This document shows, one piece after another, positions 1,731-18,590 of a stretch of DNA of 43,902 nucleotides. This DNA is from Frankia sp. R82 (lineage in GTDB: Bacteria; Actinomycetota; Actinomycetes; Frankiales; Frankiaceae), in contig NZ_JAMQQG010000001.1 of NCBI RefSeq assembly GCF_023716925.1, forward strand, positions 83,885 to 127,786, written 5' to 3'. Each line of letters begins with the position of its first letter. Position 1 is the first letter of the stretch. The notes under the pieces are model-generated. The model was given only the letters and a program-made list of their open reading frames with translations. It did not search any database and was not told the origin of the DNA. A program made the translations under genes and the position numbers.

Positions 1731-1771
1731 CTGACATGGATGGCATGCCCACCGTGAACTAGGAGATGCTG

Positions 1772-2530
1772 ATGAGCGAAACCCGACGCGTCGCGATCGT
1801 GACCGGGGCGGCCCGGGGTCTTGGCGCGGCCACGGCCCGCCGGCTCGCCACCGACGGCTTTGCCGTCGCCCTGGTCGACCTGGACGAGGCGGGGGCCAAG
1901 GAGGTGGCCGAGAGCATCGTCGCGGACGGTGGGGCAGCCCTTGCCGCCGTCGCGGACATCAGCGACGGCGCGCAGGTCGCCTCGGTCGTCGCCCGGGTCG
2001 CAAGCGAGCTTGGTCCGCCCACCGTGCTGGTGAACAACGCCGGCATCACGCGGGACAACCTCATCTTCAAGATGCCCGAGTCCGAATGGGACCTGGTGCT
2101 TGCCGTGCACCTGCGCGGTGCGTTCCTGATGACCCGCGAGGTCCAGAAGTACATGGTCGAGGCCAGGTACGGCCGGATCGTCAACCTGTCGAGCACGTCC
2201 GCGCTGGGCAACCGCGGCCAGGCGAACTACTCGGCGGCCAAGGCCGGTATCCAGGGTTTCACCAAGACGATCGCGTTCGAGCTCGGCAAGTTCGGGATCA
2301 CGGCCAACTCCGTCGCCCCCGGCTTCATCGCCAGCGAGATGACGAAGGCGACCGCCGAGCGGCTCGGCAAGGACTGGGAGGAGTACAAGGTCGAGCGGGC
2401 CAAGTCGATCCCGGTCGCCCGGGTCGGTGTCCCCGAGGACATCGCGCACACCGTGTCGTTCCTGGTCAGTGAGGGTGCCGGCTACGTCTCCGGTCAGGTC
2501 ATCTACGTCGCCGGTGGCCCGCGGAACTGA
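1772..2530 (+). CDS. SDR-family oxidoreductase (FabG-like)
   Basis: A 252-aa classical short-chain dehydrogenase/reductase. It has the nucleotide-binding TGAARGLG (11-18), NNAG (88-91), and the Ser140/Tyr153/Lys157 catalytic set in NLSSTS and YSAAK. The family oxidises or reduces hydroxyl/keto groups, here most likely on a 3-hydroxyacyl-CoA or ring ketone. Two ATGs are 6 nt apart; AGGAG at 1761-1765 abuts the first and is properly spaced from the second, so ATG 1772 is chosen. A thiolase follows 75 bp downstream on the same strand, an order typical of beta-oxidation (hydroxyacyl-CoA dehydrogenase, then thiolase). Confidence 0.92.
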   Translation: MSETRRVAIVTGAARGLGAATARRLATDGFAVALVDLDEAGAKEVAESIVADGGAALAAVADISDGAQVASVVARVASELGPPTVLVNNAGITRDNLIFKMPESEWDLVLAVHLRGAFLMTREVQKYMVEARYGRIVNLSSTSALGNRGQANYSAAKAGIQGFTKTIAFELGKFGITANSVAPGFIASEMTKATAERLGKDWEEYKVERAKSIPVARVGVPEDIAHTVSFLVSEGAGYVSGQVIYVAGGPRN

Positions 2531-2605: not shown

Positions 2606-3790
2606 ATGACGGGCACCGAGGTCGTGGTGGTGGACGCCTGCCGGTCGGCGATCGGCAAGCGCAAGGGGTCACTGAAGGACGTCCAGGCGCCGGACCTGCT
2701 CGGGGATGTGCTGCGCGGCCTGTTCGACCGCACCGGCCTCGACCCGGCGCTCGTCGGGCAGCTCGTCGTCGGCTGCGTCAGCCAGGTCGGCCAGCAGGCG
2801 GCGAACATCGCCCGCAACGCCTGGCTCGGTGCCGGCCTGCCGCTGGAGGTCGGCGGTTCGACCGTGCAGGCCCAGTGCGGATCGTCGCACCAGGCGACCA
2901 CGATGGCGCACGCGCTGGTCGGCTCGGGCCTGATCGACATCGCGGTCGTCGGCGGCATCGAGTCGATGAACCAGGTGCCGATCAACGCCAGCGTCGACGT
3001 GCCCTACGGCACCGGGCGGGGCGAGCGGTTCCGCGAGCACTACGAGGTGACCACCCAGTTCGAGGGCGCGGAGCGGATCGCCGAGCGGTGGAACATCACC
3101 CGCGACGACCTCGAGGCCTACGCGCTGCTCGCCCAGCAGCGCGCGGCCGTCGCCGTCGCCGAGGGACGCTTCACCGGCCAGATCGTCCCCGTCTCGGCAC
3201 CGGTTACCGACGACGAGGGCACCGTCGTCGGCCACAAGCCGTTCACCATGGACGAGGCGCTGCGGGCCACCACGCTCGAGGGTCTGGCCAAGCTGAAGAC
3301 CAACATGCCCGACCGTCCCGGTGGCAGCCGGCACACCGCTGGCACGTCGTCCCAGTTCGCCGACGGCGCCTCGGCGATCCTGCTCACCAGCGCCGCCCGC
3401 GCCGAGCAGCTCGGTCTGCCCGCCCGCGCCCGGCTGGTCCACTCGGTGCTGGTCGGCTGCGACCCGGTGACGATGCTCACCGGGCCGATCCCGTCCACCC
3501 GCAAGCTGCTCGCCGAGACCGGCCTGACCATCGATGACATCGACGTGTTCGAGGTCAACGAGGCGTTCGCGTCGGTCGTGCTGGCCTGGCGCAAGGAGCT
3601 CGGCGCCGACCTGGACAAGGTCAATCCCAACGGGGGAGCCATCCCGTTCGGCCATCCGCTCGGCGCGTCCGGCGGCATCCTGCTCACCCGCGCCCTGAAC
3701 GAGCTCGAGCGTACCGGCGGTCGCTACGGTCTGATCACCATGTGCTGCGGCGGCGGCCTGGGCACCGCCTCCCTCATCGAACGTCTCTGA
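2606..3790 (+). CDS. Thiolase (acetyl-CoA C-acyltransferase family)
   Basis: A 394-aa thiolase. Nucleophilic Cys91 lies in QAQCGSS; EVNEAFASV, the active-site His in PFGHPLGASGG and the second catalytic Cys in CCGGGLG follow. ATG 2606 has GGTGGAG immediately upstream. It is downstream of an SDR in the same operon, so the pair probably runs the last two steps of a side-chain or ring degradation. It differs from the thiolase at 136-1365 (CGSS against CGSG around the nucleophile, different N-terminus), so the two are paralogues rather than a recent duplication. It is convergent with the SDR at 3863, separated by a perfect hairpin. Confidence 0.93.
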   Translation: MTGTEVVVVDACRSAIGKRKGSLKDVQAPDLLGDVLRGLFDRTGLDPALVGQLVVGCVSQVGQQAANIARNAWLGAGLPLEVGGSTVQAQCGSSHQATTMAHALVGSGLIDIAVVGGIESMNQVPINASVDVPYGTGRGERFREHYEVTTQFEGAERIAERWNITRDDLEAYALLAQQRAAVAVAEGRFTGQIVPVSAPVTDDEGTVVGHKPFTMDEALRATTLEGLAKLKTNMPDRPGGSRHTAGTSSQFADGASAILLTSAARAEQLGLPARARLVHSVLVGCDPVTMLTGPIPSTRKLLAETGLTIDDIDVFEVNEAFASVVLAWRKELGADLDKVNPNGGAIPFGHPLGASGGILLTRALNELERTGGRYGLITMCCGGGLGTASLIERL

Positions 3791-3862: not shown

Positions 3863-4669
3863 TCAGTGGCAGGACATGCCGCCGTCGACGGCCAGCGTGA
3901 TGCCGGTGACGTAGGACGAGCCGGGTGACGCGAGGAAGATCACGGCGGCGTCGAGTTCGTGGGACTCGCCGATACGAGGCAGGATGCCGGTGTTGGTGAT
4001 GAACGCGGTCAGGGTCTCGCGGGGGACGTCCGCGGTCAGTTCGGTCTCGAAGTAGCCGGGGGCGATGGCGTTGACGCGGATGCCCTTGCGGTCGGACCAC
4101 TGCTGGGCAAGGTCGCGGGTGAGGCCGATCAGACCGGACTTGCTCGCGCTGTAGGCGGCCTGCGGGGTGTACGACTTGACCAGGCCCAGCACGCTCGCGA
4201 TGTTGATGATCGACGAGCCGGGGCGCATGTGGCGGGCGCAGGCCTGGGCGGCCCAGTAGGCGCCGTTGAGGTTGATGTCGATGACCCGGCGGAACTCGTC
4301 GGGCTTCTCCCTTGAGGCGGGGACGGCGGTGCCGATCCCGGCGTTGTTCACCAGGATGTCGATGCGGCCGAACTCGGCGAAGGCTGCGTCGGCAAGGGCC
4401 GTGCAGGCGTCGGGGTCGGCGATGTCGGTCTCCACCGCGAGGGTGCGCCGTCCGGTGGACTCGGCGACCGCGGTCGCGACCTCGCGCAGCCGGTCGGCGC
4501 GGCGGGCCGCGAGCACCACGTCGGCGCCGGCCTCGGCGAGGATCTGGGCGAACCGGGCGCCGAGCCCGGAACTCGCGCCGGTCACGACGGCGACCCGGCC
4601 GTCCAGCCGGAACAGATCCAGCACACCGCCGGCGCCGTTGGAGCCGGTAGCAGAGCTGTCACCGCTCAT
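3863..4669 (-). CDS. SDR-family oxidoreductase, last gene of the ACAD-kinase-SDR operon
   Basis: A 268-aa SDR with TGASSGLG (30-37), NNAG (108-111), a Ser in NIASVLG and Tyr/Lys in YSASK (173-177). It ends in VDGGMS, usual for gluconate-dehydrogenase-like SDRs. The first 20 residues are a Gly/Ser-rich lead. Its ATG overlaps the stop of the upstream kinase-like gene by 4 bp (ATGA, 4666-4669), so translation is coupled. In levulinate-type pathways a dehydrogenase of this family accompanies a 4-hydroxyacyl-CoA kinase and an acyl-CoA dehydrogenase, which makes a role on the same substrate likely. Substrate unproven. Confidence 0.92.
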   Translation of the reverse strand: MSGDSSATGSNGAGGVLDLFRLDGRVAVVTGASSGLGARFAQILAEAGADVVLAARRADRLREVATAVAESTGRRTLAVETDIADPDACTALADAAFAEFGRIDILVNNAGIGTAVPASREKPDEFRRVIDINLNGAYWAAQACARHMRPGSSIINIASVLGLVKSYTPQAAYSASKSGLIGLTRDLAQQWSDRKGIRVNAIAPGYFETELTADVPRETLTAFITNTGILPRIGESHELDAAVIFLASPGSSYVTGITLAVDGGMSCH

Positions 4670-5787
4670 GCCGGGACCACCTTTCCGTCATAGGTCCGGT
4701 CCGCCAGGGCCTGCAGGCCGGCCGCGGCGAGCGGGGCGGTGGCCTCGCCGACCCGGTCGAAACCTTCGCCACGGGTGAGGCCCTGCAGGTGACGGGCGTG
4801 GATGCCTTCCGCGATCACCGCGATCTTGAAGTAGGCCAGGCCCAGGTAGAAGGAGAACGCGCCGAGGCTGCGGCCGGTGGCGGCGACGTACCGGTCGATC
4901 AGGGCGTCGGCGGCGGGCATCCGCGGGCTGGTGGCGGCGGCGGAGCCGGCAAGGACGGGGGCGAACGCCGGATCGGCGTAGGCCAGGTGCAGGCCGAGGT
5001 CGGCGAGCGGGTCGCCGAGGGCGGCCATCTCCCAGTCGACGACGGCGCGGATGTCGGTCGGGTCGGCCGGGTTGAGGATGACGTTGTCGATGCGGAAGTC
5101 ACCGTGCACGATCGACGCGCCGGACTCGACCGGGCAGAGCTCGGCGAGCCGGGCGTGCAGCGCGTCCACATCGGGCAGTTCGGCGGTGCGGACCCGCTGC
5201 CACTGGTCGTGCCAGCGGCGGACCTGGCGGGTGAGATACCCCTGCGGGCGGCCGAAGTCGCCCAGGCCCACCGCGGCGGGGTCGACGGCGTGTAGCCGGG
5301 CGAGCACGTCGACGAGCGCGAACGCGCAGGCGTCCACCTGGGCCTGGTCGAGCGCCGCGAGCTCCTCCTCGGTGCGGATCACCGAACCGTCGACGAACTC
5401 GACGACCGCGAACTGCACACCGAGTGGCCCGCTCGCGTCGCTGGACGCCACCGCCCGGGCCACCGGCACGCCGCTGCCGGCGAGCGCCGAGACGATCCGG
5501 TACTCCCGCAGCATGTCGTGGGCGGACGGAGTGAGCCCGCCGAGCGGCGGACGGCGCAGGACCCAGCGGTACTCACCCGCGGTGAGCAGGTAGGTCAGGT
5601 TGGACCGGCCACCCGAGAGCAGCCTCGCCGACAGCGGCCCGGTGAAGCCCTCGACCCGCTCGGCGAAATACGCCTCGAGCGCGGGCAGATCCAGTCCCTC
5701 GACGGCGCCGCTGTCCGCGGCCAGCTCATCCCCGGTCGCCTCGACTCCGGTAACTCCGGTAACTCCACTCTCGGTCACGCCGCTCAC
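4666..5787 (-). CDS. ACAD10/11-like phosphotransferase (APH fold), putative hydroxyacyl-CoA kinase
   Basis: A 373-aa protein with the aminoglycoside-phosphotransferase/choline-kinase fold. It has a GGRSNLTYLL glycine-rich start (59-68), catalytic IVHGDFRIDN (226-235) and metal-binding DWEMAALGDPLADLG (251-265). The spacing and wording of these motifs match the N-terminal kinase domain of mammalian ACAD10/ACAD11 and bacterial LvaA rather than drug-resistance enzymes. It sits between an acyl-CoA dehydrogenase and an SDR with 4-bp overlaps on both sides, which argues for a metabolic kinase acting on a CoA-bound hydroxy acid. The first 35 residues are low complexity (repeated GVTGVT) and could be untranslated if an internal start is used, but the ATGA overlap supports the long form. 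Function is inferred from family and context. Confidence 0.88.
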   Translation of the reverse strand: MSGVTESGVTGVTGVEATGDELAADSGAVEGLDLPALEAYFAERVEGFTGPLSARLLSGGRSNLTYLLTAGEYRWVLRRPPLGGLTPSAHDMLREYRIVSALAGSGVPVARAVASSDASGPLGVQFAVVEFVDGSVIRTEEELAALDQAQVDACAFALVDVLARLHAVDPAAVGLGDFGRPQGYLTRQVRRWHDQWQRVRTAELPDVDALHARLAELCPVESGASIVHGDFRIDNVILNPADPTDIRAVVDWEMAALGDPLADLGLHLAYADPAFAPVLAGSAAATSPRMPAADALIDRYVAATGRSLGAFSFYLGLAYFKIAVIAEGIHARHLQGLTRGEGFDRVGEATAPLAAAGLQALADRTYDGKVVPA

Positions 5788-6983
5788 CGACCGGCACCGG
5801 ACGTGGCGGCGTGGCGGGCGACGCGGCGGGCGATCGCCCAGCGGTGGGTCTCGGACGGACCGTCGTAGATCCGGAACGGCCGGACCTCGCGCAGGAAACG
5901 GCTCAGCGGGACATCGCCGGAGACACCGAGCGCGCCACAGATCTGCAGCGAGCGATCGACGACCCGGTAGATCGCCTCAGCGCAGAACGTCTTCGCGATC
6001 GCGGTCGACTGGGCGCCGGAGCGGCCCTGGTCGAGCTCCCAACAGGCCTGGTTGATCAGTCCGCGGGAGGCCGCGATGTCGATCTCGTTGTCCGCGATCA
6101 TCTGCTGGATCATGCCGAGTTCGACCAGGCGGGAGCCGAACATCTCTCGTTCGTTCGCCCGGCGCACGGCGATGTCGCGGGCGTGTTTCGCGATGCCCAG
6201 CCAGCGCATGCAGTGCGTCATCCGGGCGGGGCCCAGGCGCACCTGGGCGTAGCGGAAGCCCTCGTCCACCTCACCGAGGACGGCGGAGTCGGGCACCTCG
6301 CAGTCGTCGAAGACCAGCTCACAGTGGCCGCCGAACAACGTCTCGTCCAGCGTCTCGATGTGTCGGACGATCTTCATGCCGGGGTTGTCGGCATCGACGA
6401 GGAACATCGTCGCGCCGCCGGTGGCGACCCCGGGCTCGCCGGAGGTGCGCGCCATGCAGATCGCGAAGCCCGCACCGTCCGCGCCGGTGATGAACCACTT
6501 GCGGCCGTTGATTCGCCAGCCGCCGTCGATCCGCTCGGCCCGGGTGAGCAGCGCCCGCGGGTCGGAGCCGGCGCCGGGGGCGGGTTCGGTCATCGCGAAG
6601 CAGGAGCGGATCTCGCCGGTGGCCAGTGGCCGCAGGTACTGCTCCTTCTGCTCGTCGGTCGCGATGATCTCGAGCATGTGCATGTTGCCCTCGTCGGGCG
6701 CGGCGATGTTCAGCGCGAGCGGGCCGAGCAGCGCGTAGCCGGCCTCCTCGAACACGGTGGCGCGCCCGCGCATGTCCAGCCCGTGACCGCCGTACTCGAC
6801 GCTGACGTGCGGGGCGAACACCCCGGCCGCGCGGGCGGCGTCCTGCAGCTCACGGCGCCGCTCGGACGTGGGGGCGACGACACCGTCACGGGCCTCGAGT
6901 GGCAGCACCACGTCGCGGACGAACGCGGCGGTGCGCTGGGCCAGATCGGCGACGAACGGCTCGGGGGCGAGGTCAATGGTCAT
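5784..6983 (-). CDS. Acyl-CoA dehydrogenase, ACAD10/11 type
   Basis: A 399-aa FAD-dependent acyl-CoA dehydrogenase. The family signature runs through CFAMTEPAPGAGSDP (128-142) and GRKWFITGADG; the C-terminus has the YDGPSETHRWAIARR segment, like the DGPxEVH of ACAD10/11. The open frame extends 57 codons further upstream, but ATG 6983 is preceded by GGTGGAG at good spacing and begins a typical N-terminus, so it is taken as the start. The stop overlaps the kinase start by 4 bp. First gene of a three-gene operon, divergent from a TetR gene at 7257. In known systems such an ACAD removes the phosphate introduced by the kinase and yields an enoyl-CoA. Confidence 0.92.
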   Translation of the reverse strand: MTIDLAPEPFVADLAQRTAAFVRDVVLPLEARDGVVAPTSERRRELQDAARAAGVFAPHVSVEYGGHGLDMRGRATVFEEAGYALLGPLALNIAAPDEGNMHMLEIIATDEQKEQYLRPLATGEIRSCFAMTEPAPGAGSDPRALLTRAERIDGGWRINGRKWFITGADGAGFAICMARTSGEPGVATGGATMFLVDADNPGMKIVRHIETLDETLFGGHCELVFDDCEVPDSAVLGEVDEGFRYAQVRLGPARMTHCMRWLGIAKHARDIAVRRANEREMFGSRLVELGMIQQMIADNEIDIAASRGLINQACWELDQGRSGAQSTAIAKTFCAEAIYRVVDRSLQICGALGVSGDVPLSRFLREVRPFRIYDGPSETHRWAIARRVARHAATSGAGR

Positions 6984-7076: not shown

Positions 7077-7092
7077 GCTAATGGTCGTTAGC
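7077..7092. promoter_or_regulatory. Inverted repeat GCTAA-N6-TTAGC, putative TetR operator
   Basis: A 16-bp perfect dyad with 5-bp arms lies between the divergent ACAD operon (start 6983) and the TetR gene (start 7257). This is the classical place for a TetR operator controlling both directions. The half-site TTAGC also occurs in the larger sites at 8819-8854 and 11891-11926. Confidence 0.45.
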
Positions 7093-7256
7093 GAAATCCT
7101 AGAAGCGGCTTTCGTAGCCCGCAACCGGTCCCCGCTACCATCAGGGCATTCCAACGAGCAGCGCCGCGCTATCGCCTGTTAGCAGCGAAGGTTCGACGCG
7201 CGGCGGCGGTGCGCGATGTCCGACGGCGCCGCTCGACGGTGGGAGGTGATCGAGGA

Positions 7257-7853
7257 GTGGGACGGACCGGCTCGGCGCGTTCCGGGGAGATCCTGGCCGC
7301 CGCTCTCGATCTTTTTACCCGTCTTGGTTATGAGGCGACCACGATGGCCGACATCGGCACCGCGGTCGGGGTACGCGGGCCCAGCCTGTACCGGCATGTG
7401 GCGTCCAAGCAGGACATCCTGGCCCAGATCATGACGCGGACGATGGAGGAGCTGCTGGCGGCGCACCGGTCGGCGCTGGCCGGCCTGGCCGGTACCGCGC
7501 AGGATGATCCGGTCGAGCGGCTACGCCGGGCCACCGAGGCGCATGTGCGCTATCACGCGCGGCACCGGCGGGAGGCGTTCGTCGGCAACCGGGAGATCCG
7601 CAGCCTCGTCGCGCCGGGACGGGCCCGGGTGCTGGCACTGCGGGCCGACTACGAGCGCTGTTTCCGGGACCTGATCGAAACGGGCATCCAGGCCGGCCGG
7701 TTCGACGTGACCTCCGCGCAGTTGGCCTCCTACGCCATCCTTGACCTGGGGATGGGAGTGGCCGTGTGGTTCCGGGAGGAGACCTCACCGGACGAGGACG
7801 CGGTGGTCTGGCAGTACGGCCAGTTCGCGCTGCGTCTGGTCGGCGCGCACTGA
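7257..7853 (+). CDS. TetR-family transcriptional regulator
   Basis: A 198-aa regulator. The N-terminal HTH reads TMADIGTAVGVRGPSLYRHV, and the C-terminal half resembles ligand domains of KstR2/FadR-like TetR proteins that sense acyl-CoA. The start is decided by the ribosome site: GGGAGGTGATC at 7241-7251 is nearly complementary to the 16S tail and is correctly spaced from GTG 7257. An upstream in-frame GTG at 7209 has no such site. It is divergent from the ACAD-kinase-SDR operon, which it probably represses in the absence of a CoA-ester inducer. It is convergent with the IclR gene, 24 bp away. Confidence 0.9.
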   Translation: MGRTGSARSGEILAAALDLFTRLGYEATTMADIGTAVGVRGPSLYRHVASKQDILAQIMTRTMEELLAAHRSALAGLAGTAQDDPVERLRRATEAHVRYHARHRREAFVGNREIRSLVAPGRARVLALRADYERCFRDLIETGIQAGRFDVTSAQLASYAILDLGMGVAVWFREETSPDEDAVVWQYGQFALRLVGAH

Positions 7854-7877
7854 TGCGAGGTGCCGCGCCCTCCCGGG

Positions 7878-8786
7878 TCAGCTGCTCGTCGCCCCGCCGC
7901 CGGCGGCCTTGCTGGCGCGCTGGGCGGCCTCGGCGACCTGGCGGCCAAGCGCGTGCATCTCGCGGCTGGTGAGGTCGTAGTTCGGGCCGAGCAGCATCAG
8001 GGCGGCGACGACCCGGCCGGCGACGTCGAGCACGGGCGCGGAGACCTGGGTCATCCGCACGCTCACCCCGTCGTTCAGCTCGGGGACCAGGACCAGGTAC
8101 TCGGTGTGCTGCATCAGGTCGACGAGTTCCTCCTGCTGGCGGCGAGCGGCCCCCATGTCGGGCGCGGACTCCATCAGCGAGAAGGCGGTCGCGAAGTCGG
8201 GGATGTCGCCGCGGGCCACCGTGATGCTGTAGCCACGGGCCCGGATGGCCTGCAGGGCCTGTTCCCAGGCCCGCGTCTGGCCGCTCGTCACGGCGTCGTC
8301 GGCCCGGGCGAGCCAGGCGGCGGAGTCGGCCTCACTCCAGGCGACCAGCACCGCGCCGAACGGCGGCACCAACGGCATCGACTGGCCGGGCCGGGGCCGC
8401 ATACCCAGCGGCGGCCCCCAGTCGGACACCGACATCACCCGGGTCTGCGTCCCGGCCCGGGCCGACACGGCCACGCAGGCGCCGAGCTTCTGGGCCAGCT
8501 CCTCCGCCTCCCGGCTCGCGGCGCTCAGCGTCGGGTTGCCCACCCGGGTCACATCACCCAACGCAATGCAGAACGCACCCAGTTCGTAGCGCAGCCCCGG
8601 CTCGCGGCGGACCACAAGGCCGTGCTCGGCCAGCGCCTGCAGAATGGAATCGCAGGTGGCCCGGGGGATGTCCACGGCCCTGGCCAGCTCCGAGACCGAA
8701 TAGGACTCGGAGGGGTGCCGTGCCATGAGCCACAGCAGCTGACCGGCCCGCAGGACGGCCGGGGACGGGTTGATCGGCATGTTCAT
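7878..8786 (-). CDS. IclR-family transcriptional regulator
   Basis: A 302-aa protein. The N-terminal winged HTH (YSVSELARAVDIPRATCDSI, about 28-47) is followed by the IclR effector-binding domain, with GDVTRVGNPTLSAASREAEELA in its usual place. IclR proteins often control aromatic or lipid catabolic genes through small-molecule ligands. Two starts are possible (8786 or ATG 8780); neither has a strong ribosome site. Immediately upstream is a 36-bp inverted-repeat site (8819-8854) that recurs at 11891-11926, suggesting autoregulation plus control of the promoter region between the phosphotransferase and the CoA-transferase. Confidence 0.9.
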   Translation of the reverse strand: MNMPINPSPAVLRAGQLLWLMARHPSESYSVSELARAVDIPRATCDSILQALAEHGLVVRREPGLRYELGAFCIALGDVTRVGNPTLSAASREAEELAQKLGACVAVSARAGTQTRVMSVSDWGPPLGMRPRPGQSMPLVPPFGAVLVAWSEADSAAWLARADDAVTSGQTRAWEQALQAIRARGYSITVARGDIPDFATAFSLMESAPDMGAARRQQEELVDLMQHTEYLVLVPELNDGVSVRMTQVSAPVLDVAGRVVAALMLLGPNYDLTSREMHALGRQVAEAAQRASKAAGGGATSS

Positions 8787-8818
8787 CCCCAGGGGATGGC
8801 GCGAAGCGTAACAAGCTT

Positions 8819-8854
8819 CGCTAGTATTTCAGACAGGTCGCCCATATACTAGCA
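8819..8854. promoter_or_regulatory. 36-bp inverted-repeat operator upstream of iclR
   Basis: GCTAGTAT (8820-8827) and ATACTAGC (8846-8853) form a perfect 8-bp dyad. Read as 10-bp arms, the site is CGCTAGTATT-N16-TATACTAGCA. The same arms with the same 16-bp spacer occur at 11891-11926. A second overlapping dyad, GCGAAGC-N7-GCTTCGC, lies at 8801-8821 just before the IclR start. CTAG is rare in high-GC actinobacteria, which makes chance recurrence unlikely. Confidence 0.6.
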
Positions 8855-8897
8855 GCCCGCCGATGGGTTGCCGTCGACCCGGCTCTCGACCAGGTGG

Positions 8898-10592
8898 TCA
8901 GGCCAGGCGGGTTGCGGCCTCGCGCCGAAGCGTGGCCTTGATGATTTTTCCGGTGGAGGTCCGGGGGAAGTCCGAGACGGCCTGGACGTACTCCGGTGTC
9001 TTCTGCCGGCCGAGGCCCCCCTTGATGAGACGCTCCCGCAGCGCCTCCGGCGTCGGCGCGGTCGCGTTCGCGGCCAGCCGCAGCACCGCGCAGGCCTTCT
9101 CGCCGAACCGCTCGTCGGGCACGGCCACGACCGCGACCTCGAGCACCTCCGGAACCACCTTGAGGATGAGCTCCTCGACCTCGGCCGCGCTGATGTTCTC
9201 GCCACCCCGGATGATGATGTCCTTCCTGCGATCCGTGATGGTCAGGCAGCCCCGGTCGTCCAGGACGCCGACGTCCTCGGTGCGGTACCAGCCCTCGTCG
9301 TCGAACACCGTCGCGTTGAGGCTGGCGTCGGTGTAGCCGAGGCACAGGTCGGGGCCGCGCGACCAGATCTCTCCCGGCACCCCGACCTCGACCGGCTGGC
9401 CCTCGTCGTCCAGCAGCCTGATCTCCACGCCGGCCAGCGGTCGGCCGTCGGTGTAGAGCCGGTCGTGCCGGTCGTCCTCGTGCCGGGTGCCGGTGATCGA
9501 CGGATGCTCGGTCGAGCCGTACATGCGGACCACCGACGTGCCGGCCGCGGTCGCCCGGTCGGCGAACGCCTCGGGCACCGCCGCGCCGCCCAGGCCCACG
9601 TAGGCGAGGTAGCGCATGTGCTCGGGGGTGAGGTCGGGATGGTCGAGCAGGCTGGCGAGGAAGTAGGTCGACCCGGCGCCGGTGGCCAGCCCATAGCGCA
9701 GCACGATCTCCAGCACCCGCTTCGGGTCCCAGACGTCGATCATGTTGACCTGGGAACCGCCCAGCACCGGCATCTGCAGGGCGCCCAGCATGCCCATGAA
9801 GTGGCCGACGGGTGTGCCGGTGAGGTGGTCCACGCCGCCGCCGGAGTTCATGGCCCGCAGCTGGTCCGCCTCGGCACAGATGGTGTTGTGCGAATGGATG
9901 ACGCCCTTGGGCTGCGAGGTCGTACCCGAGGTGTAGGCGATGACGGCCGGGGAGTCCGGGTCGGGCCGGGCGATCTCGGCCAGCGGTACGGACGCCTCGA
10001 GCTCGGCGAACCGCACCGCGCCGGCCGGCAGCGGCGCACCATCCCCGCCGACCACGGCCAGTACCCGCAGCGACGGCAGGTCCGTGACGGCCTCGGCGAG
10101 ATCGGCCAGGTAGTCGCGCCGGCCGAACCGCGCCGCCGAGACGAACGCGGTGACCCTGGTCCGGCGCAGGATGTACGCGACCTCCTTCGCCCCGTAGAAG
10201 TGCACGATCGGGACGACCGCGGCGCCGAGGAAGGAGGTCGCGTAGAACGCGACCGCGGCCTCGGCCCAGTTCGGCAGCTGGAAGGCGACCGCGTCTCCCG
10301 CTGCCACCCCGCGGGCCCGCAGGCCACCGGCCACCGCCAGGGCCCGCTCCCGCAGTTCGCCGAAGGTGCCCTCCCAGGGCCGTTCCTGGGAGTGGACCCG
10401 CAGAATCTGATCACCGTGTTCGCGCAGCGCGCTTTCGATCCGCACGCCCATCGGGACGTCGCCCCACAGGCCGTCCGCCCGGTATCGCTGCGCCAGGTGC
10501 GCCGGAACCGCACGCGTGACCCATTGCTGGTCCGACCCGGCAGGCTGGTCCGACCCGGGAGACTTGTCTGACACGACAGGCTTTTCTGACAC
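8898..10592 (-). CDS. Acyl-CoA ligase (AMP-forming, ANL superfamily)
   Basis: A 564-aa adenylate-forming ligase that activates a carboxylic acid with ATP and CoA. Motifs: the P-loop YTSGTTSQPKG (220-230), YGSTEHPSITGT, GWYRTEDVG, the hinge region DRRKDIIIRGGENIS, and the C-terminal catalytic Lys in TSTGKIIK. The open frame extends almost 100 codons upstream but that part is low-complexity; GTG 10592 is preceded by GAGGAA at 7 nt and is taken as the start. The first 22 residues are a repetitive SDK/SDQ tail. It lies upstream of iclR and downstream of the CHK-like phosphotransferase, all on the minus strand. Substrate unknown; a steroid, terpenoid or fatty acid fits the neighbours. Confidence 0.92.
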   Translation of the reverse strand: MSEKPVVSDKSPGSDQPAGSDQQWVTRAVPAHLAQRYRADGLWGDVPMGVRIESALREHGDQILRVHSQERPWEGTFGELRERALAVAGGLRARGVAAGDAVAFQLPNWAEAAVAFYATSFLGAAVVPIVHFYGAKEVAYILRRTRVTAFVSAARFGRRDYLADLAEAVTDLPSLRVLAVVGGDGAPLPAGAVRFAELEASVPLAEIARPDPDSPAVIAYTSGTTSQPKGVIHSHNTICAEADQLRAMNSGGGVDHLTGTPVGHFMGMLGALQMPVLGGSQVNMIDVWDPKRVLEIVLRYGLATGAGSTYFLASLLDHPDLTPEHMRYLAYVGLGGAAVPEAFADRATAAGTSVVRMYGSTEHPSITGTRHEDDRHDRLYTDGRPLAGVEIRLLDDEGQPVEVGVPGEIWSRGPDLCLGYTDASLNATVFDDEGWYRTEDVGVLDDRGCLTITDRRKDIIIRGGENISAAEVEELILKVVPEVLEVAVVAVPDERFGEKACAVLRLAANATAPTPEALRERLIKGGLGRQKTPEYVQAVSDFPRTSTGKIIKATLRREAATRLA

Positions 10593-10686
10593 GACGGCTT
10601 CCTCGTTGACGCAGTGTGCGGATGGGTGAGCACAGGTCGGAACAGACCACGGGCGGGGCCCGGCCGGGCCGAACCGATGGCGTCGG

Positions 10687-10756
10687 GTTCGGTGACCGGC
10701 GGGGTTCATGACCGGCGAAGGTTCAGTGGCCGGCGACAGTTCAGTGATCGGCGATG
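10687..10756. repeat. 17-18-bp imperfect tandem repeat, four copies
   Basis: Four units of the form GTTCRGTGRCCGGCGAYR (10687-10703, 10704-10720, 10721-10738, 10739-10756). The last unit runs through the stop codon of the minus-strand phosphotransferase gene, so the gene's C-terminus is built on this repeat. The array fills the gap to the ligase. Confidence 0.85.
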
Positions 10757-11808
10757 GTGAGAGCGTCGTGGTCCGCCGCGGCCGTGCCCAGGCGGCGCAG
10801 CAGTTCGGACCGGATCTTCGGCACCACGATCTGGGTGATCCCCCACAGGTAGAAGCCGTGCAGGATGCCGCCGCGCAGCGCACGCCACGCGTCGTCCTGG
10901 CCGGGCGGCTCGACCCCGCCGGCGCGCAGGTGGTCGAGGTAGTGGCGCAGCAGGTCCCGCTCGTGGATCCGGCGGTCCTCGACGGTCAGCGTCGAGGCGA
11001 TGTGGTAGCCGACGTCGAGGTACCAGGGGCCACGCTGGGTGAGCTGCCAGTCCAGCAGCGCCGGCCGGCCGTCCGCCTGGAGGTAGAGGTTGCCGACGTG
11101 CGCGTCACCGTGGATCACCGACCAGGGAGTGGCTCTGCTGCTGCGCTCGACCAGCGCCCGGTAGGCCGCGGCCAGCCGCTCGGCATCGCGGACCTCGGCG
11201 GGGACACCGGCGCCGATCTCGGTGTCGAAGTTGACCGTACGGATCACCTCCACGCCCCGGACGTCGGCGATGGCGTGCAGCCGCGGCGTCAGCCAGGGCA
11301 CGTCGGCAAGCTTCGGGCTCAGCCAGGTGGCGGCATGCAGCCGGGCAAGCTGGGCAAGGCTCTCGGCGACCTGCGCCGGGCCGTACTCGCTGGTGGGTTC
11401 GAGGAAACGGGCGCCCTGGGCGACGACGTCCTCGGTGATGATCACGTTGTCCTGGGTCTGCGGGTCGATGTCCGCGTACAGGCTGTTCAGGGTGCGCACA
11501 CCGGTTGCGGCGGCCAGATCCCGGTAGAAGTAGACCTCGAAGGCTCCGGTTGACCGGGCCCCGGCACCGGCCTCGGTGAAGTAGCCCTTGCCGCAGAGAT
11601 GGGCGGACAGGCCCTCGGGCAACCCGTCCTCGGCCTCGATCTCGAAGCGGGCGTTGGTGGAGACCCGGCTGACGATCGGCCCGGGCGTAACTCCGGTGAT
11701 CCGGACGCCCGGGAAGCGTTCGGCGAGGGCGAGGTTCAGCCACTCCGGCGACTGTAACCGCGCCAGATCGGTGGGAATCGGCACGGCACGGTCCTGGGAT
11801 AAAGCCAT
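10741..11808 (-). CDS. CHK/ecdysteroid-kinase-like phosphotransferase
   Basis: A 355-aa kinase-fold protein. Catalytic loop VIHGDAHVGNLYL and metal-binding LLDWQLTQRGPWYLDVGYHI match the CHK-like (choline/ecdysteroid kinase-like) branch of the APH superfamily rather than the ACAD10/11 branch at 4666-5787. ATG 11808 has GAGGTGG upstream; the frame extends 15 codons further without a site. In insects relatives phosphorylate steroid hydroxyls; in bacteria most members are uncharacterised but are frequent in actinobacterial lipid-catabolism loci. A role in phosphorylating a hydroxylated intermediate is inference. Its promoter region carries the 36-bp inverted repeat at 11891-11926. Confidence 0.85.
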   Translation of the reverse strand: MALSQDRAVPIPTDLARLQSPEWLNLALAERFPGVRITGVTPGPIVSRVSTNARFEIEAEDGLPEGLSAHLCGKGYFTEAGAGARSTGAFEVYFYRDLAAATGVRTLNSLYADIDPQTQDNVIITEDVVAQGARFLEPTSEYGPAQVAESLAQLARLHAATWLSPKLADVPWLTPRLHAIADVRGVEVIRTVNFDTEIGAGVPAEVRDAERLAAAYRALVERSSRATPWSVIHGDAHVGNLYLQADGRPALLDWQLTQRGPWYLDVGYHIASTLTVEDRRIHERDLLRHYLDHLRAGGVEPPGQDDAWRALRGGILHGFYLWGITQIVVPKIRSELLRRLGTAAADHDALTIADH

Positions 11809-11827
11809 ACGCCACCTCACATTGCCA

Positions 11828-11861
11828 GCATGACAACGGTGCCGGCATGACAACGGTGCCA
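11828..11861. repeat. 17-bp tandem duplication
   Basis: Two adjacent copies of GCATGACAACGGTGCCR (11828-11844, 11845-11861), just upstream of the phosphotransferase start; a degenerate third copy may follow near 11880. Unit length is the same as in the arrays at 2564 and 23769. Confidence 0.85.
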
Positions 11862-12231: not shown

Positions 12232-13440
12232 GTGGACCAGGGTGCATTCGAGGGCTTACGCGTCGTCGAGCTGGCGCAATGGGTCTTCGTTCCCGTGGCC
12301 GGCGCGCTGTTGGCGGACTGGGGCGCGGACGTCATCCGGATCGAGCGCCCCGAGGGCGACCCGTACCGGGCCCTGGCGACGCAGGGCATCGGCACGGATG
12401 CCGGCGGGGTGAACATGTCGCTGGCGCTGGCCAACCGGGGCAAGCGCTCCGTCGCTCTCGATCTTCGCAACGAGCAGGGCCGCGCCATCCTCGAGCGGAT
12501 CCTCGAGACCGCCGACGTGTTCCTGACCAACGTCCGCCCCGGCGCGCTCGAGCGGCTCGGTCTGGATCCCGAAAGCCTCACCGCGCGTTTCCCCGGGCTG
12601 GTGTATGCCCGCGGTAACGGCTACGGCTCCCGCGGGCCCGATGCCGGCCTGCCCGGCTACGACTCCTCGGCGTTCTTCGCCCGGGGCGGCCTCGCCCACG
12701 TCCTGACCCCCGCCGACCGCGACCAGCCCATCGGCCAGCGCGGCGCGATGGGTGACCGCAACGGGGCGATGGCGCTGGCGTTCGGGATGGCCGCGGCACT
12801 GCTGCGCCGCGAGCGCACCGGTAAGGGTTCCGTCGTCGACGTCTCTCTGCTCGGCATGGCGATCTGGACGCTGTCCTCGGATGTGCTCTCGGCGCTCCAG
12901 GGTCAGCAGCCGCGGGCGCTGTCCAGCCGCGAGCAGATGCCCAATCCGCTGGTCAGCAGCTACCGCACCAGCGACGACCGGCACATCCAGCTGGTGTTCC
13001 TGCAGCCGGACCGATACTGGCCGGACTTCTGCCGCCTGATCGACCGGCCGGACCTGATCGAGGACCCACGCTTCGTCGACCTCGCCGCCCGCGCGAAAAA
13101 CCGCACGGAGTGCATCGCGGTGCTCGACGCGGAGTTCGCCAGGCGCACCTACGCCGAGTGGAAGGAGCTGCTCGCGGGGATCGACGCCCCGTGGGCGCCG
13201 GTCCAGGCCGTCGAGGAGCTGCTCACCGACCCGCAGGTACTCGCCAACGACTACCTCGGCGAGGTCGACGAGGACGGGCTGAAGTACACCCTGCCCGCCG
13301 TCCCCGTGCAGTTCGACAACCGGGCTCCCGAGCTGCACCGTGCGCCGGAGCACGGCGAGCACACCGAGTCGGTGCTGTTGGAGCTCGGCTACAGCTGGGC
13401 GGAGATCTCCGATCTCAAGGACGCGGGAGCGCTGCCGTGA
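12232..13440 (+). CDS. Family III CoA-transferase (CaiB/BaiF)
   Basis: A 402-aa family III CoA-transferase, which moves CoA between carboxylic acids. Typical features are VVELAQWVFVPVAGALLADWGAD-type N-terminus (written here only in part), ERPEGDPYR, LDLRNEQGR and RGNGYGSRGP followed by PGYD, whose Asp144 corresponds to the catalytic Asp of the family. GTG 12232 follows GAGGAGAGG. The stop overlaps the GTG of the next gene by 4 bp, so it is the first gene of a coupled set with the Zn-ribbon/OB-fold and Ltp2-like proteins. It may activate the substrate or recycle CoA from a product. Confidence 0.92.
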   Translation: MDQGAFEGLRVVELAQWVFVPVAGALLADWGADVIRIERPEGDPYRALATQGIGTDAGGVNMSLALANRGKRSVALDLRNEQGRAILERILETADVFLTNVRPGALERLGLDPESLTARFPGLVYARGNGYGSRGPDAGLPGYDSSAFFARGGLAHVLTPADRDQPIGQRGAMGDRNGAMALAFGMAAALLRRERTGKGSVVDVSLLGMAIWTLSSDVLSALQGQQPRALSSREQMPNPLVSSYRTSDDRHIQLVFLQPDRYWPDFCRLIDRPDLIEDPRFVDLAARAKNRTECIAVLDAEFARRTYAEWKELLAGIDAPWAPVQAVEELLTDPQVLANDYLGEVDEDGLKYTLPAVPVQFDNRAPELHRAPEHGEHTESVLLELGYSWAEISDLKDAGALP

Positions 13441-13943
13441 TCCCGGCGGGCACTGCGGGTGCGGCGGGCGTGCCGGTGCCCGCCGGTGCCGGCACCGGCA
13501 CGCCCGCCGCGGGCTCCCCGCGGCCGGTGCCGGTGCCGGACGAACAGTCCGCCCCGTTCTGGGCGGCGACGGCTCGCCATATGCTCACCGCCGCCCGCTG
13601 TGCCCGGTGCCGGTCACTCACGATCCCGCCGGACCAGGTGTGCCCGCACTGCGACGCCACCGATCCGGAGTTCGTGTTCGAGCCGGTCAGCGGCCGGGGC
13701 CGGATCCGGTCCTGGACGGTCGTCCGGCAGTCGTTCCTGCCGGGTTTCAACGCCGAACTGCCCTACCTGCTCGTCGACGTCGAACTGGACGAGCAGCAGG
13801 AGTTACGGATGATCGGGCGCTTACTCGACGGCCCGGACAGTCCCGTGCGGCTGGGCACGCCCGTCCGGGTGGCCTTCGAGGACGTCGCGGACGGCGTCTC
13901 GATCCCCGCCTTCGTCCTCGCCGACGGACAGGAGGACGCATGA
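13437..13943 (+). CDS. Zn-ribbon/OB-fold protein (DUF35 family)
   Basis: A 168-aa protein. It has a rubredoxin-like zinc ribbon with Cys55, Cys58, Cys69 and Cys72 (CARC and CPHC) followed by an OB-fold (RGRIRSWTVVRQSFLPGF, RMIGRL). DUF35 proteins bind acyl-CoA and partner with thiolase-like proteins; in cholesterol side-chain degradation they complete the Ltp2 aldolase. The next gene is exactly such a thiolase-like protein, with a 4-bp overlap. The start GTG 13437 overlaps the previous stop, but the first 32 residues are Ala/Gly/Pro-rich and encoded over a 20-bp perfect hairpin; GTG 13533 is an alternative start. Confidence 0.87.
   Translation: MIPAGTAGAAGVPVPAGAGTGTPAAGSPRPVPVPDEQSAPFWAATARHMLTAARCARCRSLTIPPDQVCPHCDATDPEFVFEPVSGRGRIRSWTVVRQSFLPGFNAELPYLLVDVELDEQQELRMIGRLLDGPDSPVRLGTPVRVAFEDVADGVSIPAFVLADGQEDA
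13461..13510. repeat. 20-bp perfect inverted repeat at the start of the DUF35 gene
   Basis: Arms 13461-13480 and 13491-13510 are perfectly complementary with a 10-nt loop. It lies in the region encoding the low-complexity N-terminus of the Zn-ribbon protein, 21 bp after the CoA-transferase stop. Such a stable stem so close to a coupled start could attenuate or tune translation of the downstream pair, or mark a true intergenic element if the gene starts at 13533. Confidence 0.85.
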
Positions 13944-15145
13944 GCGGCAGACTGACGTCCAGCAACAAGGTCGCCGTCGTCGGCTACGCGCACAGCGTCG
14001 TCCAACGGCACAACCCACGCCCGCTGGGGGCGCTGACCGTCGACATCGTCCGGGCGGCGATCGCCGACGCGGGGCTCGTCCCAGCGCAGGTTGACGGGAT
14101 CGTCGCCGCCACCCTGTTCCCGTCCGCCGGCTCGCACACCATCGAAGACGGTGTGCACACCGTGACCACCACCTGGCTTGCCGAACGCCTGGGTGCCTCG
14201 CCCCGCTATGTGGCCGGCTTCCAGGGCGTCGGGCAGGTGTCCGGCTCGGTGGCACTGGCGGTCAACGCGATCGTCAGCGGTGCCGCCGACCACGTGGTGC
14301 TCTACCGGTCGCTGCACAACCCCAGGGGCAGCTACCACGCCAGCGCGACGGACGCCTTCGGCGGCCCGGCGCAGTGGACCGCGCCGACCGGCTACTTCGG
14401 TCCGCTGGCGATGATCGCCCTGCCGTACAACGAGTACCTCCAGCGCTACGGCGCGACCCGCGAGGCGATGGCCGCGGTTCTGGTGGAGGCGCGCAAGAAC
14501 GGCGCGCGGATCCCCTGGTCCTACTGGTACGGCAAGCCGCTGACGGCCGAGCAGTACCTGGCCGCGCCCACCCTCACCGATCCGATCTGCCGCTACGACT
14601 GCGACATCCCGGTCGACGGGGTGGCGGCGTTCGTCCTGACCTCGGCGGACCGCGCGGTGGACGGGCCGAACCGGCCGGTGTACGTCTCCGGCTACGCCCA
14701 CGCCGTGCCGAAGACCAACAACCGGCTGCCGTTGCACTGGCCGCTCGACGACATCATGACCGCGGGCCTCGACACGGCGCGGCGGCTGTGGGAGAGCTCC
14801 GGGGTGAAACCGGGCGAGGTCGACCTGCCCCAGCTGTACGACGGGTTCTCACCGTTCGTCTGGTTCTGGCTCGAGTCACTCGGCCTGTGCCCGGTCGGCG
14901 AGGCGCACCGGTTCGTCCAGGACGGGCGGATCGACAGCGACCGACCCGACGGGCTGCCGGTGCTCTCCGGTGGCGGCGCGCTCGGCAACGGCCGGATGCA
15001 CGGCATCCCGCAAATGCTCGAGTGCTACCTGCAGCTGGCCGGTCGGGCCGGCGACCGCCAGCGGGCGACGGCGACGTTGGCCGTGGCCTGCCAGTCCTCG
15101 CCGCACTACGGCGGGGCGGTCGTCTACAGCGTCGATCCCTTCTGA
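13940..15145 (+). CDS. Ltp2-like thiolase-fold protein (putative retro-aldolase)
   Basis: A 401-aa thiolase-superfamily protein of the lipid-transfer/Ltp2 branch. At the position of the thiolase nucleophile the sequence is GVGQVSGS, with no Cys, so it is not a normal thiolase. LPQLYDGFSPF and GGGALGNGRMHG are the conserved C-terminal segments of the branch. Known relatives work with a DUF35 partner to cleave a 3-hydroxy acyl-CoA by retro-aldol chemistry. ATG 13940 is preceded by AGGAGG and overlaps the DUF35 stop (ATGA), matching an obligate complex. Products would be a ketone or aldehyde and a short acyl-CoA; an aldehyde dehydrogenase gene follows at 15269. Confidence 0.88.
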   Translation: MSGRLTSSNKVAVVGYAHSVVQRHNPRPLGALTVDIVRAAIADAGLVPAQVDGIVAATLFPSAGSHTIEDGVHTVTTTWLAERLGASPRYVAGFQGVGQVSGSVALAVNAIVSGAADHVVLYRSLHNPRGSYHASATDAFGGPAQWTAPTGYFGPLAMIALPYNEYLQRYGATREAMAAVLVEARKNGARIPWSYWYGKPLTAEQYLAAPTLTDPICRYDCDIPVDGVAAFVLTSADRAVDGPNRPVYVSGYAHAVPKTNNRLPLHWPLDDIMTAGLDTARRLWESSGVKPGEVDLPQLYDGFSPFVWFWLESLGLCPVGEAHRFVQDGRIDSDRPDGLPVLSGGGALGNGRMHGIPQMLECYLQLAGRAGDRQRATATLAVACQSSPHYGGAVVYSVDPF

Positions 15146-15268
15146 CCCGGCCGGCCGCACCGGTCGTACCAACCCGGCGGCGCCTGGCAGGTCGGTGGGT
15201 CAGCCGGTAGGCCCGGTTCACGGCGGGGACGCCGCAACCGTCATCCAGCGAAGGAAAGGGACAGGTCG

Positions 15269-16738: not shown

Positions 16739-16820
16739 CCAGCTTCGGCCGATGACCCTCCGGGGGGATTCCACTCCGGCCGGGTAGCGGCCGAGAGAAC
16801 AAAGGGAAGGGAACAAGGAA

Positions 16821-18041: not shown

Positions 18042-18044
18042 CCT

Positions 18045-18467: not shown

Positions 18468-18590
18468 TCCGGGCAGCGTCGAGCAACAGGTGACGAGATG
18501 ACCCGCTACCCGAAACAACGACACTGATGACACGTACGAGGCGAGCGGCGAAGTTACGCGAGTGGCTGTCGCCGGAGGTGAGCAGCTGAC

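What the first reader, a model, noticed from the sequence alone, without database searches (positions are those of the whole stretch)
3863..6983. Three-gene operon that mirrors ACAD10/ACAD11 and LvaA-type hydroxyacyl-CoA phosphorylation
An acyl-CoA dehydrogenase, an APH-fold kinase and an SDR overlap by 4 bp at both joints. The kinase carries ACAD10/11-like motifs (GGRSNLTYLL, HGDFRIDN, DWE) and the dehydrogenase carries DGPSETHR, near the ACAD10/11 DGPxEVH. In mammals these two domains are fused and remove a 4-hydroxyl through a phospho intermediate; in Pseudomonas levulinate catabolism separate proteins do so. Seen here: motifs and overlaps. Inference: a split bacterial version serving steroid, terpenoid or hydroxy-fatty-acid breakdown, under TetR control.
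Basis: partly seen in the sequence, partly recalled or inferred. Interest (0 to 1): 0.75.

Follow-up and report, generated by a model that had tools for sequence, protein, structure and literature searches.

The report
Operon for removing 4-hydroxyls from acyl-CoAs
Three neighbouring bacterial genes look like a split version of the mammalian ACAD10/ACAD11 enzymes, which phosphorylate a 4-hydroxy fatty acyl-CoA and then remove the phosphate so that the acid can be burned; here the dehydrogenase looks like the one of Pseudomonas levulinate operons and the kinase like the mammalian one.

Summary
In detail: ACAD (5784-6983), APH-fold kinase (4666-5787) and SDR (3863-4669), minus strand, overlap by 4 bp at both joints. 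The ACAD carries the residues reported to mark phosphate-eliminating ACADs (catalytic Asp374 instead of Glu, His257-Cys-Met-Arg260, Arg249). On trees it falls with ACADs of Pseudomonas levulinate (lva) operons, apart from ordinary ACADs. The kinase groups with the mouse ACAD11 kinase (support 90), not with the LvaA type, and no LvaB-like DUF6285 gene was found in the genome. So the pair is a hybrid: LvaC-type ACAD plus an ACAD11-type kinase without LvaB. On the kinase tree DUF6285 lies in the locus of 9 of 9 LvaA-type kinases and 0 of 50 others. A possible kinase start 4 bp inside the ACAD end recurs in 29 of 33 loci; a divergent TetR gene and two palindromes are conserved in near relatives. 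A family-wide ACAD paralogue has Glu, has lost the His and Arg, and has no kinase in the stretches fetched. The SDR is outside the LvaD clade. Most likely function: phosphorylation of a 4-hydroxyacyl-CoA, then phosphate elimination. Substrate unknown; nothing here is biochemical. A new variant of a known kind.

The parts
5784..6983 (-). LvaC-type acyl-CoA dehydrogenase, predicted 4-phosphoacyl-CoA phosphate-eliminating enzyme (Arg249, Arg255, His257-Cys-Met-Arg260, catalytic Asp374)
4666..5787 (-). APH-fold kinase of the ACAD11 kinase clade, predicted 4-hydroxyacyl-CoA kinase
3863..4669 (-). Short-chain dehydrogenase/reductase, predicted 4-oxoacyl-CoA/4-hydroxyacyl-CoA oxidoreductase (role inferred from position only)
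7209..7853 (+). Divergent TetR-family regulator (TetR_N, TetR_C_24)
   Evidence: orthologue on the strand opposite to the ACAD in 15 of 33 loci searched, in two of them about 3.5 kb away
7077..7092 (.). Palindromic operator candidate GCTAA-N6-TTAGC upstream of the ACAD
7168..7183 (.). Second operator candidate GCTA-N8-TAGC, tetR side
8898..10571 (-). AMP-binding acyl-CoA ligase, a possible (unproven) activating enzyme for the acid, analogous to LvaE; not in the operon
2606..3790 (+). Thiolase, possible downstream beta-oxidation step
1766..2530 (+). FabG-like SDR, possible 3-hydroxyacyl-CoA dehydrogenase step

Best explanation
The operon encodes a split 4-hydroxyacyl-CoA dehydroxylation module that works without LvaB. 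Inferred order of steps: (1) an acyl-CoA ligase, perhaps the one at 8898-10571, activates a 4-oxo or 4-hydroxy acid; (2) the SDR interconverts 4-oxoacyl- and 4-hydroxyacyl-CoA; (3) the kinase phosphorylates the 4-hydroxyl with ATP; (4) the ACAD binds the phosphate with Arg249, His257 and Arg260, takes the C2 proton with Asp374, and eliminates phosphate with its FAD acting in the rebound manner proposed for ACAD10/11, giving a 2-enoyl-CoA for ordinary beta-oxidation. The 4-bp ACAD/kinase overlap couples production of the two proteins, a bacterial counterpart of the mammalian fusion. TetR controls the operon through two palindromes. Shown here: gene layout, residues, tree positions, recurring overlap and palindromes. 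Inferred: every catalytic step, the order, the substrate, and TetR binding and its ligand.
For: The residues that PMC12440821 reports as conserved in ACAD10/11 and LvaC but not in ordinary ACADs are present. The ACAD lies in one clade with Pseudomonas lva-operon ACADs: SH-aLRT 97, 100/99 in a careful tree without the motif columns. The kinase is in one clade with the mouse ACAD11 kinase (SH-aLRT 90, 38 rows) and keeps Asp230, Asn235, Arg94-Glu95 and Arg187, the last at the site of the reported CoA-binding R176. Solved relatives by sequence are 9o56, 3dxp, then ACAD11, at 211 to 166 bits; the next is 28. For the ACAD model, 4hr3 and the two ACAD11 entries lead the fold lists by a small margin. 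In loci fetched for their ACAD, 22 of 35 ACADs with the Asp+His+Arg signature have a kinase within 1.5 kb against 0 of 13 without it (rows not independent). The paralogue clade without the signature has Glu and no kinase in the stretches fetched. Partner exchange: LvaC-type ACADs stand beside kinases of different clades, and L099 pairs a kinase of the window's clade with an ACAD11-type ACAD.
Against: No activity was measured. Thirteen ACADs with the full signature had no kinase within 1.5 kb; in two same-family genomes (G014, G020) the kinase is on another contig. The Pro reported as conserved in ACAD10/11 (human Pro463) aligns, by my reading, with Ser62 here; a Pro lies three residues upstream. 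The kinase tree is a quick one with SH-aLRT only, long outgroup branches and no drug kinases; the branch joining window and ACAD11 kinases (90) is not starred. By fold the ACAD11 kinase chain, which is partial, is not ahead of drug kinases. The SDR is outside the LvaD clade and missing from several similar loci, so it may act later or elsewhere. The ligase is not in the operon.
Confidence: 0.82

Rival explanations
1. The kinase phosphorylates another hydroxyl (for example a tertiary alcohol on a steroid or terpenoid side chain, as 25-hydroxy steroid kinase does), the phosphate then leaves by another route, and the ACAD is a dehydrogenase of the same pathway.
For: 25-hydroxy steroid kinase is the second-best entry by fold (Z 28.2 against 34.2 for 3dxp). 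The neighbourhood holds ChsH2-like, thiolase-like and P450 genes and a thiolase whose best NCBIfam model is a steroid thiolase, below its cut-off (450 of 515 bits).
Against: By sequence 25-HSK scores 28 bits against 166-170 for ACAD11. The ACAD has the phosphate-binding signature and the Asp base, for which an ordinary dehydrogenase has no known use, and the ACAD/kinase overlap recurs.
Confidence: 0.09
2. A levulinate operon in the narrow sense: the actinobacterial equivalent of lvaABCDE with levulinate or gamma-valerolactone as the true substrate. This is a substrate version of the best explanation, so the two confidences overlap.
For: The ACAD is 51% identical to a Pseudomonas lva-operon ACAD; an SDR is in the operon and a ligase nearby.
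Against: Kinase of another lineage, no DUF6285/LvaB found in the genome, SDR outside the LvaD clade, a TetR gene where Pseudomonas has LvaR, and no symporter genes in the operon. In Rhodococcus WAY2 a relative lies beside AtuA-family and biotin carboxylase genes, which points to other acids.
Confidence: 0.2
3. The kinase is an antibiotic-resistance phosphotransferase that happens to sit beside a fatty-acid gene.
For: Shared APH fold and Pfam family; drug kinases fill much of the fold lists.
Against: APH(3') model 24 bits against a cut-off of 205; best drug kinase in the PDB 23 bits against 166-211 for ACAD11, 3dxp and 9o56; recurring overlap with the ACAD gene.
Confidence: 0.01

Closest known systems
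Mammalian ACAD10/ACAD11 (PMC12440821, PMC11342911)
   Same: Kinase in one clade with the mouse ACAD11 kinase (34% identity); ACAD with the same Asp, HCMR motif and upstream Arg; same predicted two-step chemistry
   Different: Separate overlapping genes in the order ACAD-kinase, not a kinase-ACAD fusion; the ACAD is only 36% identical to mouse ACAD11 and in another clade
Pseudomonas lva operon (LvaABCDE; seen through passages of PMC6692424 and PMC9628823; the original paper is not held)
   Same: ACAD in one clade with LvaC-position ACADs (51% identity); an SDR; split genes
   Different: Kinase not LvaA-type (31% over 236 residues); no DUF6285/LvaB found; SDR outside the LvaD clade; TetR gene beside it
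Other LvaC-type ACAD plus ACAD11-clade kinase pairs without DUF6285 (Georgenia L148, Rhodococcus WAY2 L154, Acidovorax L168, Variovorax L170)
   Same: Same two partners by tree, often with an SDR
   Different: Different SDR lineages, gene orders and neighbours
25-hydroxy steroid kinase (PDB 9fsg/9ft5)
   Same: APH-type fold; activates an alcohol by phosphorylation
   Different: About 20% identity in the structural alignment; 28 bits by sequence; steroid substrate

Membership tests
Phosphate-eliminating ACAD superclade (ACAD10/11 + LvaC) | Catalytic Asp in place of Glu | tested here: met
   Asp374
Phosphate-eliminating ACAD superclade (ACAD10/11 + LvaC) | HCMR motif and upstream Arg (mouse H634-R637, R626) | tested here: met
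   His257-Cys-Met-Arg260 and Arg249
Phosphate-eliminating ACAD superclade (ACAD10/11 + LvaC) | Apart from ordinary ACADs on a tree | tested here: met
   five ordinary rows; three; 100/100 without the motif columns; the ordinary rows are few and long-branched
Phosphate-eliminating ACAD superclade (ACAD10/11 + LvaC) | Turnover of 4-phosphoacyl-CoA without electron acceptor | not testable with these tools
   needs purified enzyme
LvaC-type ACAD | In one clade with ACADs of Pseudomonas lva operons | tested here: met
   KT2440 itself was not read, but P. citronellolis against P. soli and P. peradeniyensis gives 59/77-78/69-70% for kinase/ACAD/SDR, close to the published 59/78/67% against KT2440
ACAD10/11-type ACAD | In one clade with mouse ACAD11 and 4hr3 | tested here: not met
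   these form a separate clade (100, 100/100)
ACAD10/11-type ACAD | Conserved Pro (human Pro463) | tested here: not met
   aligns with Ser62 by my reading
ACAD10/11-type kinase | In one clade with the ACAD11 kinase, apart from LvaA | tested here: met
   SH-aLRT 90 (38 rows); LvaA type is its own clade (100, 9 rows), quick tree
ACAD10/11-type kinase | Catalytic Asp and Asn, alpha-C Glu with Arg, CoA-binding Arg176 | tested here: met
   Asp230, Asn235, Arg94-Glu95, Arg187. The paper's R86 did not match by number; the Arg before the alpha-C Glu was taken
ACAD10/11-type kinase | Phosphorylates 4-hydroxyacyl-CoA | not testable with these tools
   needs purified enzyme
lva operon | LvaB partner (taken to be DUF6285 from place and size) | tested here: not met
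   protein query best E 0.33; Pfam PF19802 no match at E 1 in a 95% complete genome, while it rings in control genomes
lva operon | LvaA-type kinase | tested here: not met
lva operon | LvaD-clade SDR | tested here: not met
   quick tree without broad background
Antibiotic APH | Score over a resistance-family cut-off | tested here: not met
   24 bits against 205; no drug kinase was put in the tree
25-hydroxy steroid kinase | Close sequence and fold | tested here: inconclusive
   28 bits, Z 28.2 second to 3dxp

The most novel reading that the evidence does not exclude
4-Hydroxyacyl-CoA dehydroxylation is a modular system. One family of phosphate-eliminating ACADs works with any of several distant kinase lineages: LvaA, which needs LvaB, or ACAD11-type kinases that do not. 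The Asp/His/Arg chemistry can be lost again when the kinase partner is lost. The actinobacterial form seen here serves a substrate class not yet linked to this chemistry, such as terpenoid, steroid or lactone-derived acids.
Probability: 0.35. Interest if true: 0.65.

Novelty: new variant of a known kind. Interest (0 to 1): 0.52.

Why it matters
It gives a bacterial system in which the two activities of mammalian ACAD10/11 can be studied as separate proteins, offers a way to ask why LvaA needs LvaB and ACAD11-type kinases apparently do not, and supplies a natural control (an ACAD paralogue with Glu in place of Asp) for the proposed role of the Asp/HCMR residues. It also gives genes annotated only as phosphotransferase family protein and acyl-CoA dehydrogenase in many soil bacteria a testable function.

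Tried and rejected
Rejected: that the ACAD is an ordinary ACAD; that the kinase is a drug kinase (the tree holds no drug kinases, and the fold lists do not separate them from the partial ACAD11 chain); that the signature arose by convergence in the window ACAD alone, because on a tree without the motif columns the Glu paralogues are nested inside the Asp clade and two Asp/Glu changes suffice. My early note that the window ACAD is not LvaC-related, taken from the published 56-62% LvaC/ACAD identity, was wrong: the Pseudomonas lva-operon ACADs held here are 39% identical and 57-58% similar to mouse ACAD11.

Led nowhere: paper searches for an actinobacterial 4-hydroxyacyl-CoA system, DUF6285, or FadE36/FadE2 links listed nothing on point that I could see; the library lacks most subscription papers, Rand et al. 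2017 included. NCBIfam names neither ACAD nor kinase over a cut-off; the SDR just passes one broad SDR model (215.8 of 215 bits). The kinase-like protein at 10741-11853 has no solved relative at E 0.01. The SDR tree has many long branches.

Limits: the kinase was called LvaA-type or not by which of two queries scored higher; not all of the 85 others are of the ACAD11 clade (in one search, 15 of 65 rows, among them L149, L153, L164, L115-L117 and 9o56, fall in other clades). The kinase and DUF6285 profiles there were built from these same loci (DUF6285 from three). Loci were found with the patterns R[LM]TH[CV]MRW and [NH]x[AH]APDEGN and lean toward the signature. The count (48 of 61 with the signature against 1 of 15 without have a kinase) includes loci fetched because of a kinase, so I redid it on ACAD-centred loci; four of the 13 without the signature there are ordinary ACADs. 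Near copies make all counts non-independent. In one search, 39 of 147 ACADs had no kinase within 2.5 kb; some stretches end close by (for example L183). L258 is only 3.5 kb, so the absence of a kinase there says little. The 14 loci were chosen because a TetR gene lies close. In one search the control pattern read backwards gave as many matches as the operator pattern.
Full report
Observation. On the minus strand lie an acyl-CoA dehydrogenase (5784-6983, 399 aa), an APH-fold kinase (4666-5787, 373 aa) and an SDR (3863-4669, 268 aa). Both joints are 4-bp overlaps, GTGA and ATGA. A possible kinase start exactly 4 bp inside the ACAD end recurs in 29 of 33 loci (window included; 34 given, one without an ACAD dropped), and a -4 SDR start in 7 of the 14 loci with a near SDR. 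The overlap of ACAD and kinase is thus common; that of the SDR is less so.

The ACAD. PMC12440821 (abstract, found passages and Discussion read) reports that ACAD10/11 and LvaC share a catalytic Asp, an HCMR motif and an upstream Arg that hold the 4-phosphate, and that substitutions there stop the ACAD step. The window ACAD has Asp374, His257-Cys-Met-Arg260 and Arg249. Its closest solved relatives by sequence are three ACAD11 chains (194.6, 190.2, 187.9 bits), 4hr3 (186.3) and then an ordinary Thermus ACAD (170.1). The predicted model (pLDDT 90.7) puts 4hr3 and the two ACAD11 entries first by Foldseek and by VIA (Z 46.3, 46.1, 44.6; ordinary ACADs follow from 43.8). The lead is small because all ACADs share the fold. 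The Pro reported as conserved in ACAD10/11 (human Pro463) aligns with Ser62.

Tree of ACADs. In (70 rows, quick, five ordinary ACADs; 53 rows, careful, motif columns removed, three ordinary ACADs) the phosphate-eliminating superclade separates from ordinary ACADs, whose branches are few and long. The window ACAD lies in an LvaC-type clade (97; 100/99) with ACADs of lva-like operons: Pseudomonas L157, L159 and L160 and the Stutzerimonas S116 plasmid L152, whose operon reads PrpR-type regulator (on the other strand), kinase, DUF6285, histidine phosphatase, ACAD, SDR, acyl-CoA synthetase, DUF485 protein, symporter. ACAD11-type ACADs form another clade (100). That these Pseudomonas loci stand for the published lva operon is supported by identities: P. 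citronellolis L160 against P. soli L159 and P. peradeniyensis L158 gives 59% (kinase), 77-78% (ACAD) and 69-70% (SDR), close to the published 59, 78 and 67% of P. citronellolis against P. putida KT2440 (PMC6692424 passages). That L158 and L159 are near KT2440 is recalled; KT2440 itself was not read.

The kinase. In one search (65 rows, quick, SH-aLRT only, long outgroup branches, no drug kinases) the window kinase groups with the mouse ACAD11 kinase and 3dxp (90, 38 rows), while LvaA-type kinases form a clade of their own (100, 9 rows, stem 1.53). Fifteen rows fall in two further clades, one of them with 9o56. The window kinase is 34% identical to the mouse ACAD11 kinase, and 31% over only 236 residues to the Pseudomonas L159 kinase. 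By sequence the PDB gives 9o56, 3dxp and ACAD11 at 211 to 166 bits, then 25-hydroxy steroid kinase at 28 and drug kinases at 23 or less. The model (pLDDT 85.8) fits 3dxp best (Z 34.2), then 25-hydroxy steroid kinase (28.2) and Rv3168 (27.9). The ACAD11 chain, which is partial, is sixth in VIA (Z 21.6 over 233 residues, tied with choline and drug kinases at 20.9) and 29th in Foldseek, behind several drug kinases; the fold alone therefore does not decide.

LvaB. DUF6285 (Pfam PF19802) sits where LvaB is expected; that LvaB is a DUF6285 protein is inferred from place and size. On the kinase tree, DUF6285 is found in the locus of 9 of 9 LvaA-clade kinases, 0 of 36 loci of the ACAD11 clade and 0 of 14 loci of the other two clades. 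Over 147 ACADs of both types, the kinase within 2.5 kb scored closer to LvaA in 23 (21 with DUF6285), closer to the window kinase in 85 (0 with DUF6285), and none was found for 39. Rows are related, so this is an association, not a rate. In the window genome (95% complete) a DUF6285 protein query gave nothing better than E 0.33, and the Pfam model no match at E 1, while it rings in 7 of 14 control genomes, in 2 over its cut-off. The window pair is therefore a hybrid: LvaC-type ACAD, ACAD11-type kinase, no LvaB found. The same combination by tree occurs in Proteobacteria (L168, L170, L173, L179) and in Georgenia and Rhodococcus plasmids (L148, L154). The reverse exchange occurs in L099: kinase 69% identical to the window's, ACAD of the ACAD11 type (37% to the window's).

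A natural control. The window genome has one other ACAD of this clade (contig C349, 55% identical). It and eight relatives from the same bacterial family (9 of 9 looked at, out of 19 genomes with such a paralogue) have Glu at the catalytic site, Phe for His257 and Asn, Thr, Ala or Ser for Arg260, while Arg249 is kept; no kinase was found in the stretches fetched, about 10 kb each, but 3.5 kb for L258 and 20 kb for the window genome. With the motif columns removed they are nested inside the LvaC-type clade (100/97 and 96/90 branches), with two Asp/Glu changes on the tree, so this is most simply a reversion. In loci fetched for their ACAD, 22 of 35 ACADs with Asp+His+Arg have a kinase within 1.5 kb against 0 of 13 without (nine of the 13 are these paralogues, four are ordinary ACADs). 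Thirteen with the signature have none nearby; in G014 and G020 of the same family the kinase is on another contig.

The SDR. It is 46% identical over 235 residues to the Stutzerimonas lva SDR and 49% to a Thermus one, but falls in a clade with L123 (96) apart from the LvaD clade (99) (quick tree, no broad background). At least two more SDR lineages stand beside such ACADs. LvaD reduces levulinyl-CoA to 4-hydroxyvaleryl-CoA (PMC6692424 passages), so a 4-oxoacyl-CoA reductase is the natural guess, but this rests on position. The orthologous SDR is missing in several same-family loci (for example L088, L101-L105).

Regulation. A TetR gene (7209-7853) diverges from the ACAD; an orthologue on the opposite strand was found in 15 of 33 loci, in L096 and L097 about 3.5 kb away. 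The intergenic region holds GCTAATGGTCGTTAGC (7077-7092) and GCTATCGCCTGTTAGC (7168-7183). GCTA-N8-TAGC occurs 3 times in the window against 0.13 expected, the third at 39214; GCTAA-N6-TTAGC with up to one mismatch occurs twice against 0.11, reached by 1 of 100 shuffles. The exact GCTAA-N6-TTAGC stands upstream of the ACAD in 10 of 14 loci read (all chosen for a close TetR gene); by eye the other four carry GGCTACTGAGCATTAGCC, and the same ten have a GCTA-N8-TAGC nearer tetR. Genome-wide there is one other exact site, but the backward-read control pattern gave as many matches, so that number is not evidence; the conservation is. Binding is not shown.

Function and substrate. The best-supported reading is phosphorylation of a 4-hydroxyacyl-CoA followed by FAD-dependent phosphate elimination to an enoyl-CoA, as shown for ACAD10/11 (PMC11342911: abstract, passages and mechanism section). 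Neighbouring thiolase, SDR and ligase genes fit a beta-oxidation setting; the two thiolases and the FabG-like SDR travel with the operon in the three nearest same-genus loci L086-L088. A Rhodococcus relative beside AtuA-family and biotin carboxylase genes and another about 8 kb from limC hint at terpenoids, but the substrate is open.

Novelty. The chemistry and both protein families are known. PMC11342911 already showed that bacterial orthologues replace each ACAD10 domain and that bacterial kinases can be closer to ACAD10/11 than LvaA is; PMC6692424 reports lvaABCD homologues in Proteobacteria. The hybrid of LvaC-type ACAD and ACAD11-type kinase without LvaB, its spread in Actinobacteria, the partner exchange and the Glu paralogue did not show up in the listings, in a library that lacks most subscription papers. 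I rate it a new variant of a known kind.

Noticed in passing
own genome contig C349:14674-15852 (L010, L025:10413-11867); L248-L253, L258, L259: ACAD paralogue of the LvaC clade with Glu for the catalytic Asp and the His and Arg of HCMR lost, no kinase in the stretches fetched: apparent reversion to ordinary ACAD chemistry, seen in 9 of 9 same-family genomes looked at.
   Followed up: partly
L099 (G024:C1:5113500-5125500): Same-family genome in which a kinase 69% identical to the window's stands beside an ACAD11-type ACAD instead of the LvaC type: partner exchange.
   Followed up: partly
window 10741-11853: A second, distant kinase-like protein (EcKL 47 bits, APH 39 bits) next to the acyl-CoA ligase; no solved relative by sequence.
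   Followed up: no
window 12232-19832: CoA-transferase III, ChsH2-like OB-fold protein, thiolase-like protein, amidohydrolase and cytochrome P450 in a row, suggesting a wider catabolic island.
   Followed up: no
L151 (Thermus thermophilus HB8 pTT27) 7194-11095: lva-like set SDR, ACAD, LvaA-type kinase, DUF6285 and histidine phosphatase in a thermophile.
   Followed up: partly
PMC11342911: The paper gives 56% identity between the ACAD11 ACAD domain and LvaC; Pseudomonas LvaC-type proteins held here are 39% identical and 57-58% similar to mouse ACAD11, so the printed figure may be similarity. KT2440 LvaC itself was not compared.
   Followed up: partly
L167, L172, L174, L175, L177 (Proteobacteria): LvaC-type ACADs found by the signature pattern but with no kinase within 2.5 kb; where their kinase is was not looked for.
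   Followed up: no
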